In this document: one piece after another, positions 155 through 19,539 of the stretch
How the letters are laid out: every line of letters starts with the position of its first letter
Numbering within the stretch: the stretch's first letter is position 1
DNA from: Strigamia acuminata
Taxonomy: Eukaryota; Arthropoda; Chilopoda; Geophilomorpha; Linotaeniidae
Reading direction: 5' to 3'
NCBI GenBank assembly: GCA_949358305.1
Contig: OX442318.1
Span: 1,040,501 to 1,104,500 of the forward strand
Length of the DNA stretch: 64,000 nucleotides
Made by a program: the position numbers and the translations under genes
The notes under the pieces: generated by a model
What the model saw: only the letters and a program-made list of their open reading frames with translations
The model's database searches: none
Told to the model about the DNA's origin: nothing

Positions 155-904
155 GTAATAAGTTGTACATTTGTATGGCAATTTTAGTTTGATTACCATC
201 TTGTAATACGAATTTCCATATGGAAGTTGCAACTCTGAGCAAAAATGAATGACAGGAAAATAGTTGAATGTGCTTTTCTCCATTTGTTGACTTACCATTT
301 GAAACTTGAGCAGTGGGCTGCATGACCGAATCATATTTTTTAATCGTAAGATCCATGCGTGATTTTCCCTAGAAAGGTTTTATTTATATTGGCAAAAAAT
401 ATAAAATATAAAGAAAATGAGATTTACCGTTGTAAAGTAAGCATCAGTTATGTAATTGAAATTATTCAAGGATTTCATACCATCGGCAAAGTTATAAACA
501 CCTTTGCTCGGCACGATTAGCTTGAACAACGAATCACATTTTATGACACAGCCCCATTTTCGACAGGTTTTGTTAGAATCTTTTGTTTCCATTGGAAAAA
601 TATAAACATACGGAAAAGGACCGTGCGTTGTTTCAAGTAAGTACGCATCTACTGCTGTTGGTTCATCCATGTAATGCGATATTCTATCTGCAGTTTGGTA
701 AACGCACACTGCCAAATTGATAGCGAATAACGTGTAAAACAGAACACGCGTAATTCTTTTGTGTTTGGAAATGTCGTTGAAAGATGTGATGAATGCAGGC
801 ATCTCCATTTTGGCTGCAATAACAGTTCCAACAATGCGCTGCAATCTTATTTTTCTCAGCCGTTGTATCCGACCAATAGATGGCACCGAATCGCTTTCAT
901 CCAT
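155..904 (-). CDS. DEG/ENaC-type channel, copy 1 (5' three exons; runs off window)
   Basis: Start of an epithelial sodium channel/degenerin family gene. Exon 1 (904-428, ATG at 904, 159 codons) gives a basic cytoplasmic N-terminus, TM1 (about residues 51-70, ITRVLFYTLFAINLAVCVYQ) and the start of the extracellular domain. Exon 2 is 368-296 (73 nt) and exon 3 is 234-155 (80 nt). All have AG/GT borders and phases 0/1/0, the same lengths as the complete paralogue at 10000-15482. The next exon would lie beyond position 1. The His-Gly gating motif usual before TM1 is not seen; the site reads SKHKR. Exon 1 is nearly identical to the copy at 6286-6762, so the duplication is recent. Family assignment comes from paralogy with the complete copy, which shows TM2 and the cysteine motifs. 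Whether this copy makes a functional protein cannot be told from the fragment. Confidence 0.75.
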
Positions 905-4719: not shown

Positions 4720-4808
4720 CTGCAAGTAATACTTTTTATGAGGCAAGGATACAAACAGCTGTGTAAATTGCTATCACAAGGATTTCTCTTCGTGTTGAGG
4801 AAGGAATA
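4720..4808 (-). pseudogene. Detached DEG/ENaC exon 5 copy
   Basis: An 89-nt open exon with a TTTCAG acceptor and CAG/GTAC donor, equal in length and phase to exon 5 of the complete gene (14200-14112). It encodes NPCDSNLHSCLYPC, the post-thumb cysteine segment typical of the family. Homology extends about 200 bp on the minus-strand upstream side. No neighbouring exon 4 or exon 6 is found. It probably belongs to the decayed copy whose exon 1 is at 6286-6762. Confidence 0.6.
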
Positions 4809-5044
4809 CTGAAAGACAATTTATGGAAGTTTCAGGAATACTATTTCGTATGATAATGATTTTAAGAGAAATCTGGAACAAGGTGTGTATTTTGGATAAC
4901 CAAAGTTACAAAATTTGTGTTGAAATTATGTGCATGTATGTGTGCTAAGAGTCCCAAAATGTAGAGAAAAAAACGTGGCACATGTGAAATTGGATTACAT
5001 CAATCAGGAATTCAAAAATACAATATATTTTGTAAAAATCACTT

Positions 5045-5158
5045 AGCTGCATTCAAAAAGTCGTATTATGAGTGTTATAGATGTTTGTGTTTTTGGATGT
5101 TAAAAGATTCAAAAATTAACACAAACATCAAAAACAATACTTTTTGTTAAATGCAGCT
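5045..5158. mobile_element. Short MITE, AGCTGCATTCAAAAA family
   Basis: 114 bp with inverted ends AGCTGCATTCAAAAAGT and ACTTTTTGTTAAATGCAGCT. The same termini bound the larger element at 7258-8129. No ORF. Confidence 0.55.
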
Positions 5159-5260
5159 ACTAAAACAAAATTTAAAAAGACAAATTTTTATTTACACAAT
5201 GCAATGTGAATGCGAATGCGATATGAATGCAAATTGCGAATGCAAATTGCGAATGCGAAT

Positions 5261-6150
5261 GATCTTCCAACGACCTTCCAACAACCTTCAAACGACCTTT
5301 AAACAACCTTCAAACGACCTTCCAACAACCTTCAAACGACCTTCAAAAAACCTTTAAACGACTTTCAAACAATCTTCAAATGACCTTCAAACAACCTTCA
5401 AACGACCTTCAAACGACCTTCTAACAACCTTCAAACGACCTTCAAACAACCTTTAAACGACCTTCAAACAACCTTCCAATGACCTTCAAACAACTTTTCA
5501 ATCATCAATCAACGACCTTCCAACAACCTTCCAACAACCTTCAAATGACCTTCCAACAACCTTCAAATAACCTTCCAACAACCTTCAAACGACCTTTAAA
5601 CAACCTTCACCTGACCTTCAAACAACCTTCAAATGACCTTCAAACAACCTCCAAACGACCTTCAAACAATTTTTTAATGACCTTCCAACGACCTTCAAAC
5701 GGCCTTCAAACGACCTTCAATCAAACTTCAAACGACCTTTAAACAATCTTCAAATGACCTTCCAATGACCTTCAAAAAACCTTCAAACAACCTTCCAACA
5801 ACCTTTAAACAACCTTCAAACAACCTTTAAACAATCTTTACATGACCTTCAAACAACCTTCAAATGACCTTCAAATGACCTTCAATCAATTTTCAAACGA
5901 CCTTTAAACAACCTTCAAATGACCTTCCAACAACCTTCAAACGACCTTTCAACAACCTTCCAACGTCCTTCAAACAACCTTCACGCGACCTTCAAACAAC
6001 CTTTACATGACCTTCAAACAACCTTCAAATGACCTTCAAACAACCTTCAAACGACCTTCAATCAACCTTCAAACAACCTTTAAACAACCTTCCAACAATC
6101 TTCTAACAACCTTCAAACAACCCTTCAATGACTTTCCAACAAGCTTCAAT
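5261..6150. repeat. 11-bp minisatellite, unit ACCTTCAAACA
   Basis: About 80 degenerate copies of an 11-bp unit (ACCTTCAAACA, ACCTTCAAACG, ACCTTCCAACA). It is preceded at 5200-5260 by a different short repeat of GCGAATGCAAATT type. The array sits between exon 1 and exon 5 of channel copy 2, where exons 2-4 would be expected. Confidence 0.9.
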
Positions 6151-6285
6151 CGATTAGCGATTGGTGTATAGGTAGCTGCCGGTCCTGACTGGAAAGTGTA
6201 ATTGCTTTGAGAATTATCCTGTGTTGCTGCCATGAATACCATCACTGCCATATAAAAATATAAAATATAAAATAATAAGATTTAC

Positions 6286-6762
6286 CGTTGTAAAGTAAGC
6301 ATCAGTTATGTAATTGAAATTATTCAAGGATTTCATACCATCGGCAAAGTTATAAACACCTTTGCGCGGCACGATTAGCTTGAACAACGAATCACATTTT
6401 ACGACACAGCCCCATTTTTGACAGGTTTTGTTAGAATCTTTTGTTTCCATTGGAAAAATATAAACATACGGAAAAGGACCGTGCGTTGTTTCAAGTAAGT
6501 ACGCATCTACTGCTGTTGGTTCATCCATGTAATGCGATATTCTATCTGCAGTTTGGTAAACGCACACTGCCAAATTGATAGCGAATAACGTGTAAAACAG
6601 AACACGAGTAATTCTTTTGTGTTTGGAAATGTCGTTGAAAGATGTGATGAATGCAGGCATCTCCATTTTGGCTGCAATAACAGTTCCAACAATGCGCTGC
6701 ATTCTTATTTTTTTCAGCCGTTGTATCCGACCAATAGATGGCACCGATTCGCCCTCATCCAT
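6286..6762 (-). pseudogene. DEG/ENaC-type channel, copy 2, exon 1 only
   Basis: ATG at 6762, 159 codons, donor ACG/GTAAAT at 6286. The product is nearly identical to exon 1 of copy 1: basic N-terminus, TM1, and the extracellular motif ETTHGPFPYVYIFP. Exons 2-4 are absent, and the sequence passes within about 60 bp into unrelated DNA and the 11-bp minisatellite. Only an exon-5 copy lies further on (4808-4720). The upstream TATA box is altered. A fragment is the simplest reading, although exon 1 itself is intact and its recent origin leaves transcription possible. Confidence 0.6.
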
Positions 6763-9999: not shown

Positions 10000-12900
10000 T
10001 TAAATGAAATATTCAACGAGTGCAAATGTAAAGAGACCCGTAAAAATCCCAACGATTGATCCAATTTGACAAAGCAATTTTACAATGTCAAGTTTTTCTT
10101 CTTCTGCAATTTTTTCTCGAATGTTGTTGCCAATAATAAATTTGTAAAAGACCAATCTACTATAATATGATACTTGTATTACTGAAGATAGGAACATTGT
10201 TTCTTCACAGGGTGATGGGCAGTCACAGTGTTTGCGAGGATCTGTCTTCAGTTGAGTCTCCAAATACATTTTAAAAGTCTTTTCGGCCGTTTCTTTGGTC
10301 AGGCAGAAAGGTAGATCACTCGTTTCCATAAATGGTAATCTAATAGTAGGACAAATTTTATATAAATATATACAGGAGTAAAATCTTGTTTGAAAATCAT
10401 TTTGGGCAAATTTTTATTTAAGAAAAATTGTTTTTTCATAATCTGTGCTTGATTAGACAGTCTAGTTTCTAATGGTTTCTAATTGGATTTTGTTTTTCTC
10501 GCCTCTCTTCGTTCTGTTTTCCATTATCATGATCTTGGGATATATATTTATATAAATTCCACATAATACAATTGTGGAATTTTTTCCCCAATCTAGAGCT
10601 TTCATGCTGACCTTTTTGTTTTAATGTGGGGTTTTAAACTTGTTTATTTGGGGGGGGGGGTTGTTTAAGTAAACTTATATTATTTGAACATGAGTTTCTT
10701 TTTTGCTATATTTTGTATTAATAATTAGATGTATTTCGTGGTGGCCATCCAGGTCCGGGACCTACGACTACAATCAAATGTGGGAATAAAAATTTATAAA
10801 TAAATAAATCCAAGAGGTTGGGTTACCAAAAAAGTTGTCCCATAGATCGCAACCAAGGAAATTTCTTAAATTTGTAATAGCTATTAGAAAAATAAATATT
10901 TCTACGGAACCAGACTTTATTACAATCCTGTATTTGCCATGTATACAGACTCCTTAGAGTTGTGAGTACCAGGTTAACTTTGTGATACTTGTGTACTGAA
11001 AATACATACTTGCAATTGAATGGTTGAAGGTCTAGCTTGGCTCTATAGCACCTTTCTTCACATTCTGAAACTGCATCATTTGCCGCACAAGGGTTTTTTG
11101 GAGTGTTTATTCGAACCAACTGAAAGGAATAAACTTACAAATACCATACCATAGATACAGGGTTTCCCAAACGGTGAGGCGGGCCTCACTAGTGGGGCGC
11201 GAGCTCATTATTGGTGGGGCACACCCATCATACATGCCTAAATAAAACAAGCTTATTTTGCAAACTTTCATACATTTTTAACCAAAATTATATAAAATTA
11301 TATAAAAAATTATACACAGTTTTATGCAAATTTATATTAAAATTTCTTTTTTTTCTTTTTAGTAGTATATTTTTTAAAAATATAATGCACTGTTAGATGA
11401 AGTGGGGCGCAGAAGATCGCCTTGCTTAAAAAGTGGGGCGCGATGCTAAAAAGTTTGGGAACCCCTGCCATAGAAGATAGTTTTACTACAGGTGTTACCG
11501 TTTTACGAGCAATGTAAATGTTAAAAGAACCCACATTGGGCATGTAAACTATGTATTTCGGATGTAGAAATTGGTTCTGTGGTAGAATGAAGCTCTGGAA
11601 TGAATGAAATAAACAAAATAAGCAACCGAATAAGAATTAAAACCATCACAAGATCTCACTGCTTCATTCACATTCCATTTGTATTTGATTGGTTTTTGAT
11701 AATGATCAAAATATAAAAAGTTTTTTCTCAATACATACTTCAGATCAACTGTAAAGATTGAAAAGTGAGAAGAAAATAGTGTTTTGTATTTATTTTTACT
11801 TTTCTTAAATTCAGTGCAGATTCCGAATACAGTTGACACAGCCGACACATTGGCGGAAAATATGTCAAATATCTCTTTTTTTTCCTTAAGGTATCTCTAT
11901 AAAAACAACTATTTGTAATTGAAAGTAAAGTGCTGGGCTTGGGTGCCATCAGGATTGTTTGAAAGGAGGTACACACTGCCTAACATAAACTAAAATTATC
12001 TTACGCTAGGTTTACTTTTCACGCAAGTGCTGGCACCCAACATTTGTCACCGAATATGAAATTTAATTAATAATTTTGTTACTTCGTGGTCTTCCTTATG
12101 AAGTTCAAAATTCGAAGAGGCGTTCCATAATTTCAGAGGATTATTGGCAAATTCAGTTGACGGATAAAAAAGCTTGTAATGACGAACATCCTCGTGTAGT
12201 TGTTCAGCTAATTTTTCCTTGGCTGTTACTATTTTTTGAGATTCACGGCAATGGACAATGAGTGGAAAATGAATAATTTTGTCTCGTTTCAGTTCAACTG
12301 TTTTGACGATTGGACAATCAAAATAAGTATCGATCGAAGTGTAAACTAGGTAAATGGAGATGAAAGATAGGAGAAGTAATACGACGTTTTTCAGTTTATT
12401 TTTTTCTTGTGTCTTTTGCTCATTTTCTTGGATTACTCGAATTATTTCTTGCAACCTGTTCTTGGCTTTCCTTCTTTTTTTGAATTTGATGAACGGTAAT
12501 TTGCAGCAGTGAACAAATATTTCGACGAGTGTCAAACAAGACATTCCGAAGTAGAGTCCGATGTTTCCGCCAATGTCGCACAGCAAAGAGATTATGTCGT
12601 AAGAAAATTGTTCTTGCAATGTCCGAACGTAATTATTCACAACAGCAACATCGAGGATATTTTCAGAATAGGGTATTATTTCAAAAGATGTGCTGAGTTG
12701 TGTCACATCGCATAAATTAGGACATTCGCACAGCTCTATTGCGTCGTTGTGGTAAAGTGGTTGCATCCACTTCAGGTGTTGATCTCTTAAAACCTCTTCC
12801 TTGCATTCTGGTAGTTTCCTTGCATCGTAAAATGGATATCTAAGATTTAGAATGAAAAGAAAATTTAAGCAGTGCACAAACTTGAGCCAGTTATGCTAAA

Positions 12901-15482
12901 TGGGCTATATTTATTGGCGCACTATTTATTCTTCCTTTTTTACTAAAAATAATTTAATTCTACACTACTTTTTTGTGCACTGTTTACTCTTTTTTCCACA
13001 CTTAGAATTACGTAGGGATCGTCCATAAATTACGTAACGCAGAATTTTCGATTTTTAGACCCGTTCACCCCCTCTGTAACATAGTCATAACAAATTCTCA
13101 AACCCTCACCCCCTAATTACGTAACAAAACTGAAATCGCTTCCCCCCAAATTTTCAAAACTCATAAAAAATGCTTATATTTTTGTTATTAAATTTGAAAC
13201 TTCCCTCTACCAAAGTAATGACCCGTAACATAATTTGAAACCCTTCCCCCCCCCCCCCTTGGTGCATTACATAACTTATGGACGGCCCCTTAATTCCATA
13301 CTAATTTTTTTCCGACTAGTTTAATTTTTTTACACTACAAATTACCTATTTCTGCACTAATTGTGCCAACTGTGCCTTTTTGATTTTAGATGGCCTACCT
13401 CGTTTTCTTTTCTACGCGAGAGGAATGTTTTTGCCTTCTCAGCGCACTACAAACAGACACTCAGTAATGGCTATGACCATGATGTGCTTACTCCACCATA
13501 ACTCTCCATTTCTTGACGAATAAGACTTTGGCTACATCGAATTTCTCATCTGAGTGTGCAAGTTGCAAAGTGACAATATCCGAATGCACCTCAGTCTGAA
13601 TTTTTTTATTCCCAATCAGCTTTAGTTTTTTGTCAACAGTGCAAATCACGTAGGCCCAGCTATAAATTCTAATTGTTTTAGGTTTGAAGACGTCATGACA
13701 AGCGTCGATGATGGCAAAAAAAACTCTCACTGTCACTATTGCCGTCTGCATGAATTGCAAATCTTCCCTAAGAAATCCGTCCTGTTGTCCAAGCCCAATG
13801 ATTGGCTCACCATCTTCTTCAGCACGAATTGTATTTAGATAGATGGCATTTTTATATGTAAATGGTGCAGAAAACGTTCATAAAACGTCACCACTACCAA
13901 TCAAACGTCACCCGGACGGTTTTTTAATTAATGTGGAATTAAGTTGTCTTACATGTGAAAAAAAGAATAAATAGTGGGGGGGGAGGTAGTGCGGAATTAA
14001 ATTATTTTTAGTGAAAACTGAAGAATTAATATTGTATAACTAATTTGTAGAGATGTTAAATAAGTGATAAATCATAGACAAAAAAAATTTGAATGACTAC
14101 AGATAATGTACCTGCAAGTAATTTTTTTTAGGAGGCAAGGATACAAACAACCGTGTAAATTGTTATCGCAAGGATTTCTCTTCGTGTTGAGGAAGTGATA
14201 CTGAAAGACAATTTATGGAAGTTTCAAGAATACTATTTTGTGTGATAATGATTTCAAGAGAAGTCTGGAACAAGTTGCGTATTTTGGATACCCAAAGTTA
14301 CAATATTTGTATTGAAATTTAGTGCAAATGTGTGCTAGGAGCCTCAAAATGTTGAAAAAAAACTGGCACATGTCAATTTGGAATGAATCAATTCGGCGCA
14401 TTCACATTTTACAGGAATGACAAAAATATTCTATTCTTTTTTTTTAATATTTTCTGTTTTTTTTATTTATTTAAAAAAAAATTTCACCGTTTACTTACTT
14501 TCTCCAAACTGGTTTTAGCAGTATGTCTTGTTGCTGTCAAATTTCCTAGATGTCTGTCAATACGGTTTGCTTTCAGTAGCAAAGATGTCCCGTCACCGAG
14601 GCTGTAAGCATGATGCTTCAATGGTGAAGGATCTATTAGTACCTGAAAAATGTAAAAAAAAAAAAAAAGAGTCTAACAGTTTGTACAGGTCACAAATTTT
14701 ATAACTTTAGCAACATTTAAAAACTTACCTTAACAACATGGCATCCTATGGGGAATTTTAGTCTGATCACCATCTTGAAATTAAAATTTCCATATGGGAG
14801 CCGCAATGCTAAACAAAATTGAATTCAGAAATAATGAATATATGTTTGGTAAATTTTTGTTTTTACTTACGACTTGAAACTTGAGCAGTAGGTTGCATAA
14901 TGTTCTCGTAATTTTGAATTGTCAGATTAATGCGTGATTTTCCCTGAAAAGAATTGCTCATGTATTTTTAAAAAGAAGGAAAGGGGAATGGAGCTTTACC
15001 ATTGCAAAGTGCGCATCAGTTATGTAGCTAGGTATACTTAGATATTTTAAAATGTCAGTTAATTTAGATTTTCCAATATTTTTCAACAAAGTGTTTGAAT
15101 AATAATCAGGACATGGTTCATTCTTGCTTTTCTTTTCAAACACTTTTGCAGCATAATCAATAAGTTCCTGTGTTGTCTTTGGGAAAATGTAAATGTATGG
15201 GAAAATACCATGCGTTGTTTCAATGAAGTGCGCATTGACTATTGTCGGTTCATCCACGTAATGTGATATCCGATCTGCGATTTGGTAAACACACAATGCC
15301 AAATTGACAACGAGTAATGTGAAAGAAAGATAACGAGTTCTTTTTTTCTTTTTTGAAATGTTTTTCAGTGATTTGACGAATGCTGGTACCTCCGATTGCT
15401 CAGCCATGACAGTGCCAACAGTGTGTTGCAGTCTTCTTCTTCTTAGTCGCTGAATTAGACGATGTGGTTGGATCCAAGGCAT
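10000..15482 (-). CDS. Tandem two-unit DEG/ENaC channel (complete, 785 aa)
   Basis: Eleven exons keep one frame: 15482-15000, 14943-14871, 14808-14729, 14642-14499, 14200-14112, 12839-12083, 11896-11800, 11748-11660, 11594-11499, 11119-11010, 10339-10000 (2358 nt with stop). All borders are AG/GT. Unit 1: TM1 at about 51-69, cysteine exon RNPCDNNLHGCLYPC, the CECPNLCD motif, and TM2 with GGNIGLYFGMSCLTLVEIF, whose GMS fits the G-x-S selectivity filter. A linker of about 45 basic residues follows, then unit 2: TM1 at about 441-460 (NVVLLLLSFISIYLVYTSI), FGICTEF, KNPCAANDAVSECEERC, HCDCPSPCEE, and TM2 GSIVGIFTGLFTFALVEYFI, which ends the protein. The 757-nt exon 6 carries TM2 of unit 1 and TM1 of unit 2 without interruption, so the fusion is not an exon-joining artefact. 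Unit 2 has GLF where G-x-S is expected. Family members form trimeric Na+ channels; the ligand here is unknown. Confidence 0.85.
11158..11467. mobile_element. hAT-like MITE in channel intron 9
   Basis: 310 bp beginning CAGGGTTTCCCAAACGGTGA and ending AAGTTTGGGAACCCCTG. Flanks CATAGATA and CCATAGAA suggest a decayed 8-bp duplication. It accounts for nearly all of the extra length of this intron. A second copy is at 1765-2066. Confidence 0.65.
13015..13289. mobile_element. MITE with GTCCATAA inverted repeats
   Basis: The ends are GGGATCGTCCATAAATTACG and, reversed, GGGGCCGTCCATAAGTTATG. The interior is AT-rich with C-runs and has no ORF. It lies in the intron between exons 5 and 6 of the tandem channel gene. 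Confidence 0.6.
13488..13877 (-). other. Unidentified open frame inside channel intron 5
   Basis: An open frame of about 130 codons on the same strand as the host gene, ending KKWRVMVE at a stop at 13488. It contains EEDGEPIIGLGQQDGFLRED and FFAIIDACHDVFKP. The composition looks protein-like (mixed hydrophobic and charged, not low-complexity), but no family is recognised, no good splice acceptor is seen, and its first in-frame ATG is internal. It could be a retrocopy fragment, a relic exon or chance. It is outside the phase-consistent channel model. Confidence 0.3.
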
Positions 15483-18382: not shown

Positions 18383-18598
18383 CAAATCGGCCAGACAGAG
18401 GTTGAAAATGTATTTCGGAGAAAGGTAATAACTAACAACATTTAGCAATTCTTACGACATTGATATTGTGATTTATTTCGTTTTTTCAATGATGCTTAAG
18501 GATCTGGGGTCATGAAAACGATAACATGTGGGAACTTTGCAGTCATATGAAATATTCAACGAATCAGGTTATTTGATGACTGACTGTAAATGCCAACC

Positions 18599-19539
18599 TG
18601 CAATATGTTTGGTTGCTTTCAAATGTATTCCATCTTTTTGCGTAGTTTTAAGAAGTGTAGCTTTCAGCAGCAACATCACCCCTTCAGATAAAGCAAAAAC
18701 ATGATACTTTACTGGTGAAGGATCTATTAATGCCTGAAATTTTTAAGAACAAGTCTCAGTTTCGTAACTTTAGCAAAATTACAAACATACAAGAACTATC
18801 ATGTATTCTTCGGGGAATTTTAGTTTGATCACCATCTTGTGATCAGCATTTCAATACGGGAGCCGTAATGCTAATTAACAATAAAGGATTTAGAAATCAT
18901 AATTGTGCATTTATTTCTGTTGGTTTTGCTACTTACGACTTGAAGCTTGAGCAATAGGCTTGATAATGCTGTCGTAACTTTTAATTGTGAGATTAATGCG
19001 TGATTTTCCCTGAAAAGAAATTTCTCAGTTATTGGTAAAAGGAAGGAAAGAGAAATGGAGCCTTACCATTTCAAAGTGCGCGTCAGTTATGTAACTTGGA
19101 ATACTCAAATATTTTGATACATCAAGTAAATTATAAGTTAGATAACTGAAATGTGTTGTACCTGTGCACGCTCTGAGGTAGTCATTTGTGCCACGGATTT
19201 TTGCATCGAAATCAATAAATTCCTGTGTTGTTTGTGGGAAAATATATTAACATATGAGAAAATACCATGCGTTGTTTCAATGAAGTACGCATCGACCGTT
19301 GTCGATTCATCCATGTAATGCCGTATTCGATCTGCAGTTTGGTAAAAACACACTGCCAAATTGACAACAAGTAAGATGAAAAACAGATGGCGAGTAATTC
19401 TTTTTCTTTTGGAAATGTTTTTCAATAATTTGACGAATGCTGGCATCGCCGAATGCTTCGTCATGACAGTATCAACAATGTGCTGTACTCTTATTCTTCT
19501 TAGTCGTTGAATTTGACCAAATGGTTGAAAGACGGGCAT
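18599..19539 (-). pseudogene. DEG/ENaC-type channel, copy 4, decayed
   Basis: Four exons align with the tandem gene: 19539-19067, 19009-18937 (73 nt), 18870-18791 (80 nt) and 18733 to about 18600. Exon 1 holds TM1 but has two extra bases near 19245-19255, shifting the frame; beyond them the expected frame resumes to a normal donor. Exon 3 has an in-frame TGA where the other copies have Gly. Exon 4 breaks off near 18600, about six codons early, and joins sequence matching the flank at 15660-15700. Splice sites are otherwise kept. Frameshift, stop and truncation together indicate a pseudogene. Upstream flank 19560-19970 is shared with the intact gene. Confidence 0.8.

What the first reader, a model, noticed from the sequence alone, without database searches (positions are those of the whole stretch)
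10000..15482. One gene encodes two DEG/ENaC channel units in tandem
Seen: eleven exons with consistent phases give 785 codons containing TM1-ectodomain-TM2 twice, and a single 757-nt exon carries TM2 of unit 1, a basic linker and TM1 of unit 2. Known: DEG/ENaC subunits have two TM helices and assemble as trimers. Inference: a covalent dimer would force unusual stoichiometry, such as one fused protein plus a single subunit, or two fused proteins with one unit outside the pore. I do not recall a described member of this kind.
Basis: partly seen in the sequence, partly recalled or inferred. Interest (0 to 1): 0.92.

Follow-up and report, generated by a model that had tools for sequence, protein, structure and literature searches.

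The report
Double-unit sodium-channel genes in a centipede
A centipede gene joins two complete sodium-channel-type subunits into one protein, and the same fused design recurs in a very large family across its genome, which is puzzling because channels of this kind are normally built from three separate subunits.

Summary
On the minus strand at 10000-15482, eleven exons give 781 residues with TM1-ectodomain-TM2 twice; one 757-nt exon carries TM2 of unit 1, a basic linker and TM1 of unit 2. Both halves match Pfam ASC. It is not a one-off. The assembly is that of the centipede Strigamia acuminata. Two more searches bring the union to 173. Twelve of 13 relatives gave eleven-exon models, two of them doubtful. 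Each unit keeps ten conserved cysteines and a GxS-type filter. Linkers vary from 35 to 43 residues with the frame kept; pooled dN/dS is 0.53. In 25 of 25 presumed single-unit genes the TM2 exon starts at the same phase-2 intron, so exon 6 looks like a last exon joined to a first. I conclude: a real four-TM DEG/ENaC family. Transcripts, assembly and function are untested. My literature searches found none in print.

The parts
15000..15482 (-). Exon 1 (483 nt): start codon, cytosolic N-terminus, TM1 of unit 1, first part of ectodomain 1
   Evidence: 150 places listed in the genome, this one included, (capped)
14871..14943 (-). Exon 2 (73 nt, phase 0 to 1), ectodomain 1
14729..14808 (-). Exon 3 (80 nt, phase 1 to 0), ectodomain 1
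14499..14642 (-). Exon 4 (144 nt, phase 0 to 0), ectodomain 1
14112..14200 (-). Exon 5 (89 nt, phase 0 to 2), cysteine-rich part of ectodomain 1
   Evidence: 89 nt in all 12 relatives modelled
12083..12839 (-). Exon 6 (757 nt): end of ectodomain 1, TM2 of unit 1 (GMS filter), basic linker, TM1 of unit 2 and start of ectodomain 2 in one frame
11800..11896 (-). Exon 7 (97 nt, phase 0 to 1), ectodomain 2
11672..11748 (-). Exon 8 (77 nt, phase 1 to 0), ectodomain 2
11499..11594 (-). Exon 9 (96 nt, phase 0 to 0), ectodomain 2
11010..11119 (-). Exon 10 (110 nt, phase 0 to 2), cysteine-rich part of ectodomain 2
10000..10339 (-). Exon 11 (340 nt): end of ectodomain 2, TM2 of unit 2 (filter GLF here, GLS or GFS in the 12 modelled relatives), stop right after TM2

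Best explanation
The locus is a real gene for a single-chain, four-TM double DEG/ENaC protein, one member of a large centipede family. Two single-unit DEG/ENaC genes in tandem were most likely joined once, by loss of the stop, intergenic DNA and start between them, so that the last (TM2) exon of one and the first (TM1) exon of the next became one exon; the fused gene then multiplied in arrays. Most likely each chain lies in the plasma membrane with the basic linker and N-terminus inside and both cysteine-rich ectodomains outside, and supplies two subunits to a trimeric cation channel whose third place is taken by a single-unit DEG/ENaC or by one unit of a second fused chain. Shown: gene anatomy, both units complete in sequence, the family, the shared intron before the TM2 exon. 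Inferred: topology, once-only fusion, cation conduction. Open: which third subunit (my guess is a single-unit partner, about 0.4); a sensory, receptor-like role is a guess from family size and tandem arrays. The confidence below is for the single-chain double-unit gene family, not for the assembly scheme.
For: Eleven-exon model with consistent phases. ASC hits in both halves. 150 of 150 listed exon-6 places (this one included) span both units' TM helices, 147 without stop. On contig C6, 43 of 67 listed E6 places have an E1 upstream and an E11 downstream on the same strand within 15 kb, 4 E1 only, 18 E11 only, 2 neither, with capped lists. 12 of 13 relatives fitted as eleven exons, two of the 12 doubtful. 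The 30 best-scoring exon-6 copies (this one included) are all open; linkers of 35-43 residues, net charge +7 to +16; pooled dN/dS 0.53 over 12 non-independent pairs. Ten cysteines in each ectodomain kept in at least 10 of 11 genes compared. The units align as profiles over 140 columns on the TM2 side, probability 98.4, E 7e-15. 25 of 25 presumed single-unit genes in which the motif could be placed (28 looked at) share the phase-2 intron before the TM2 exon. Units 1 and 2 each form one clade, support 100/99 each, in a tree with 27 single-unit rows. Best PDB match of both units is centipede BRTNaC1.
Against: No transcript or protein evidence. dN/dS is rather high (single pairs 0.22 to 1.36), and highest at the linker (0.66 pooled). 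The splice models of relatives were fitted with this gene as template and its phases imposed, so phase agreement is not independent. Sister relation of the two units has weak support (90/54) with a long-branch warning; the TM1-side halves of the two units gave no profile alignment. The family also holds broken copies: three exon-6 places with stops, a close copy in which exons 6-9 were not detected, fragments in the window. The HG motif of the DEG/ENaC N-terminus is absent from unit 1 in 13 of 13 genes. Assembly and conduction were not tested, and no other species could be compared.
Confidence: 0.87

Rival explanations
1. Two separate genes lie in tandem and are read as one only because a stop or splice signal was overlooked.
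For: ASC-type genes lie close together in this genome and gene-model fusion is a well-known error (recalled).
Against: TM2 of unit 1 and TM1 of unit 2 lie in one uninterrupted exon; this holds in 150 of 150 listed places, with 147 free of stops, and linker indels keep the frame in the 30 copies aligned.
Confidence: 0.04
2. Fused chains assemble three at a time, giving six units and two complete trimeric pores side by side.
For: Both units stay complete: ten conserved cysteines each and a GxS-type filter each in the relatives; no partner gene is needed.
Against: A linker of 35-43 residues would have to span two trimers for all three chains; no structural test was made. The S to F change in the unit 2 filter of this gene and two close copies would place three Phe in one pore.
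Confidence: 0.2
3. Two fused chains build one trimer and leave one unit outside the pore.
Against: A unit that is always spare would be expected to decay, yet both ectodomains are conserved alike (pairwise identity 0.50 and 0.49 in 11 genes).
Confidence: 0.2
4. The family is decaying or non-conducting, with the fused proteins serving as membrane receptors or not at all.
For: Relaxed dN/dS, broken copies, missing HG motif in unit 1.
Against: TM2 of unit 1 is 87% identical between genes on average, the highest of all regions (11 genes), and 147 of 150 listed exon-6 places are open.
Confidence: 0.15

Closest known systems
BRTNaC1 (broad-range thermal receptor 1) of the centipede Scolopendra, PDB 8ymr-8ymx
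   Same: Best solved match to both units (E 2.3e-8 for unit 1, 8.6e-8 for unit 2), mainly in the TM2-side half of the ectodomain and TM2
   Different: Single unit of 431 residues, three chains per entry; no tandem fusion
PDPNaC1 of Scolopendra antenna, PDB 9jf7
   Same: Centipede DEG/ENaC found in antennal neurons (PMC12714832, abstract and passages); matches unit 1 (E 1.8e-7)
   Different: 421 residues, nine exons, single unit with two TM helices, homotrimer
Acid-sensing ion channel 1 (ASIC1), e.g. PDB 9e4a
   Same: Matches the region around TM2 of unit 1 (E 2.4e-6); no match listed for unit 2
   Different: Single unit; carries the HG motif (recalled) that unit 1 lacks
Two-pore-domain potassium channels (K2P), recalled
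   Same: Two two-TM channel units in one chain; works like it in layout only
   Different: Unrelated family; tetrameric symmetry divides by two, trimeric symmetry does not

Membership tests
DEG/ENaC (Pfam ASC PF00858) | Match to the ASC profile above the curated cut-off | tested here: met
   55.3 and 36 bits for the two halves, cut-off 23.6
DEG/ENaC (Pfam ASC PF00858) | TM1, large cysteine-rich ectodomain, TM2 | tested here: met
   Present twice: hydropathy peaks, ten cysteines per ectodomain kept in at least 10 of 11 genes
DEG/ENaC (Pfam ASC PF00858) | Two TM helices per polypeptide | tested here: not met
   Four TM helices in one frame; this is the novelty, each unit taken alone meets it
DEG/ENaC (Pfam ASC PF00858) | G-x-S selectivity filter in TM2 | tested here: met
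   Unit 1: GMS 26, GVS 1, GIS 1, GLS 1, EMS 1 of 30, the window gene GMS. Unit 2: GLS 11, GFS 1 of 13, GLF in the window gene itself, which thus departs in unit 2
DEG/ENaC (Pfam ASC PF00858) | His-Gly motif in the cytosolic N-terminus (role recalled) | tested here: not met
   Absent from the first 60 residues of unit 1 in 13 of 13 genes; in the linker present in 1 of 30 exon-6 copies, L044
DEG/ENaC (Pfam ASC PF00858) | Trimeric assembly | not testable with these tools
   No assembly data; spliced proteins were not sent to the structure tool because of its rule
DEG/ENaC (Pfam ASC PF00858) | Na+ or cation conduction | not testable with these tools
   Needs electrophysiology
Centipede BRTNaC1/PDPNaC1 type channels | Closest by sequence among solved structures | tested here: met
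   BRTNaC1 tops both lists; PDPNaC1 is listed for unit 1 only; similarity is weak and mostly in the TM2-side half

The most novel reading that the evidence does not exclude
Geophilomorph centipedes have evolved a receptor superfamily of natural DEG/ENaC concatemers, about 170 genes in this species, in which covalent linking of two units fixes the order of subunits in a trimeric pore and reserves the third place for a shared single-unit partner, in the way a co-receptor serves many tuning receptors.
Probability: 0.35. Interest if true: 0.93.

Novelty: new variant of a known kind. Interest (0 to 1): 0.87.

Why it matters
Internal duplication has repeatedly joined subunits in channels of even symmetry (recalled: K2P, two-pore and four-repeat cation channels). 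In a trimeric family two does not divide three, so a natural, conserved and hugely expanded two-unit chain poses a direct question about how such channels assemble. It also gives a natural concatemer with which subunit order and stoichiometry in DEG/ENaC channels could be tested, and points to a receptor-like gene family, unstudied as far as my searches show, in a blind soil centipede (blindness of the order Geophilomorpha: passage in PMC4244043). The genome paper of the related species S. maritima lists sodium transport among functions enriched in lineage-specific duplicates (PMC4244043, passage), which fits but does not show that the fused genes are there.

Tried and rejected
A protein search of the 781-residue model in the large protein collection found nothing at E up to 1e-3, so no relatives from other species could be compared; the collection may hold few animal proteins. 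The single-sequence structure model of exon 6 has no confidence (mean pLDDT 33.6, all 252 residues under 50) and is not used; no fold search was made. The cytochrome oxidase search of the own genome to name the organism did not complete; the organism was named instead from assembly span and chromosome lengths in a paper. One relative, L074, could not be modelled (failed at exon 5). Two other models are doubtful: L070, whose exon 6 holds an in-frame stop that the fitting avoided by an unusual short exon, and L064, whose exons 7, 8 and 10 score poorly and whose protein runs 16 residues past the usual end; both were left out of the region table, L064 also from the unit 2 rows. One search was a first tree in which my pattern dropped all single-unit rows; one search repeats it with 27 of 30 single-unit rows (L014, L026, L030 left out), 15 of 30 unit 1 rows and 12 of 13 unit 2 rows. 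A count of filter residues failed through a bad pattern and was redone. A polymer of more than two units was considered: the E1-E6-E11 order in the capped C6 lists shows none.
Full report
What was checked. The locus reads on the minus strand. Starting from the long open frames I placed splice sites and obtained eleven exons from 15482 to 10000, 781 residues plus stop, with phases 0>1, 1>0, 0>0, 0>2 in exons 2-5 of unit 1 and again in exons 7-10 of unit 2. It holds the end of ectodomain 1, the TM2 'LCDIGGNIGLYFGMSCLTLVEIFVHC', a linker of 39 residues with 14 K/R against 4 D/E, TM1 of unit 2 and the start of ectodomain 2. Pfam ASC is hit by each half above its cut-off. The two halves of this protein align by BLASTP over 146 columns at 29% identity on the TM2 side, E 9e-18 in a two-sequence comparison without composition correction.

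Where it is. The window lies at C6:1040501-1104500 of a 237,517,015-base assembly in 157 contigs. A paper on Strigamia acuminata gives 237.5 Mb and chromosome lengths of 66.99, 37.79, 19.35, 16.99, 16.15, 14.72, 12.25 and 9.84 Mb among others (PMC10556566, abstract start and Table 2 passage). Contigs C1, C3, C4, C5, C6, C8, C9 and C11 have 66.99, 37.79, 19.34, 16.99, 16.15, 14.71, 12.25 and 9.84 Mb. I take the species as established.

A large family. Exon 6 was searched in the whole genome: 150 matches are listed, this one included (the tool scored 150 of 1473 candidates), 47-100% identical. All 150 reach from query residue 39 or earlier to 240 or later, so all span TM2 of unit 1, the linker and TM1 of unit 2. 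Three are flagged with an in-frame stop. Two further searches with divergent members add 23 places, 173 in all by a scripted count, of which 7 lie on small contigs and 164 on C6 (78), C1 (63) and C8 (23). A few of the added places are partial, one of them starting after TM2 of unit 1 (C1:52253689). Some of those on small contigs may be second haplotype copies: the exon-6 copies on C68 and C6:944504 give the same sequence (L051, L052). None of the 53 of 93 ASC-profile places that I compared coincides with the 173. Exon 11 and exon 1 each also fill the 150-row list. On C6 the listed places follow the order E1-E6-E11 in arrays: of 67 E6 places 43 have both neighbours on the right side and strand within 15 kb, 4 only E1, 18 only E11, 2 neither; the lists are capped, so misses are expected.

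Full genes. I fetched 13 relatives as whole genes, chosen for short span. Fitting with this gene as template gave stop-free eleven-exon models of 752-793 residues in 12 of 13. Phases were imposed by the template and stops forbidden, but lengths were free within 45 nt or more, and several exons keep one length: exon 5 is 89 nt in all 12, exon 9 is 96 nt in 11 of 12, exon 10 is 110 nt in 11 of 12. Models L064 and L070 are doubtful (see Tried and rejected). In 11 genes (10 relatives and the window gene) TM2 of unit 1 is the most conserved region (pairwise identity 0.87), then TM2 of unit 2 (0.74), with ectodomains at 0.50 and 0.49 and the linker lowest at 0.40; each ectodomain has ten cysteines kept in at least 10 of the 11, with similar spacing. 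The filter of unit 1 is GMS in 26 of 30 exon-6 copies, with GVS, GIS, GLS and EMS once each. Unit 2 has GLS (11) or GFS (1) in the 12 relatives and GLF in the window gene; the two closest copies by exon 11 share GLF. In 11 of 13 models the protein ends at the same place right after TM2 of unit 2, in one two residues later and in L064 16 later, so there is next to no cytosolic C-tail.

Selection. The 30 best-scoring exon-6 copies, this one included, are all open, begin at a phase-2 acceptor, and their linkers vary from 35 to 43 residues without loss of frame; net linker charge is +7 to +16, which fits a cytosolic place. Over 12 close pairs, which are not independent, pooled dN/dS is 0.55 for the unit 1 part, 0.66 for the linker, 0.48 for the unit 2 part and 0.53 overall; single pairs run from 0.22 to 1.36. 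So the frame is kept under purifying selection, but not a tight one.

Origin. In a tree of TM2 exons with 27 presumed single-unit rows of the same genome, unit 1 (15 rows) and unit 2 (12 rows) each form one clade (100/99 each), so the fusion most likely predates the spread. The two units fall together, but with support 90/54 and a long-branch warning, so their sister relation is not shown. The single-unit genes were judged single by a TM2 exon that runs to a stop; their full genes were not modelled. In 25 of 25 of them where the motif could be placed (28 looked at, 3 not placed), the TM2 exon begins with the same phase-2 acceptor as exons 6 and 11. The simplest reading is that a last exon and a first exon of tandem genes became one exon. 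As profiles the two units align over 140 columns on the TM2 side only.

Kin. By sequence the nearest solved structures for both units are BRTNaC1 of Scolopendra, then PDPNaC1 and ASIC1 for unit 1. PDPNaC1 is a homotrimer from antennal neurons (PMC12714832, abstract and passages). Unit 1 lacks the His-Gly motif in 13 of 13 genes, and in the linker it occurs in 1 of 30 copies.

In print. Searches for four-TM or tandem DEG/ENaC proteins, two ASC domains, Strigamia with ENaC, centipede pickpocket, myriapod with ENaC, and concatemers listed no paper whose title or abstract start describes such a protein; some searches listed only part of the papers found (20 of 747, 20 of 53, 12 of 21). The S. maritima genome paper names sodium transport among functions enriched in lineage-specific duplicates (passage), and its main text holds no mention of ENaC, degenerin, pickpocket or sodium channel; its supplements could not be read. 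Subscription papers and databases of predicted proteins were out of reach, so double-ASC predictions may exist there.

How it works. Two complete units in one chain, both with a filter, most likely both take part in a pore. For the third place I favour a single-unit partner (about 0.4), because the genome holds many single-unit type genes (93 exon-level ASC matches) and both fused units are kept; two fused chains with one spare unit, and three fused chains making two pores, remain open. None of this was tested. The structure model of exon 6 alone had no confidence.

Noticed in passing
window 155-880, minus strand: Exons 1-3 of a neighbouring fused-family gene whose remainder probably lies left of the window (E6 place C6:1038592-1039335).
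   Followed up: partly
window 4722-6732, minus strand: Only an exon 1 and an exon 5 of the same family were detected between 4722 and 6732, so this looks like a broken copy.
   Followed up: partly
window 18584-19539, minus strand: Exons 1 (partial) to 4 of a family copy 85-88% identical to L065, without later exons detected: it looks like a truncated copy.
   Followed up: partly
L075 (C6:1171000-1178950): Closest relative by exon 1 (86%) has exon 3 split by about 4.8 kb and no detected exons 6-9: it looks like a broken copy, which still shares the GLF filter in exon 11.
   Followed up: partly
L044 / L064 linker: One of 30 linkers carries a His-Gly pair about 15 residues before TM1 of unit 2, near the spacing I recall for the HG motif of ASICs; remnant or chance.
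   Followed up: no
G000:C5:5192954-5193253: An ASC TM1-side match sits in an open frame of 540 residues, unusually long for a first exon.
   Followed up: no
G000, whole genome: Besides the fused family there are 93 listed exon-level matches to Pfam ASC (93 of 2092 candidates scored), several close together, so single-unit DEG/ENaC genes seem expanded too.
   Followed up: partly
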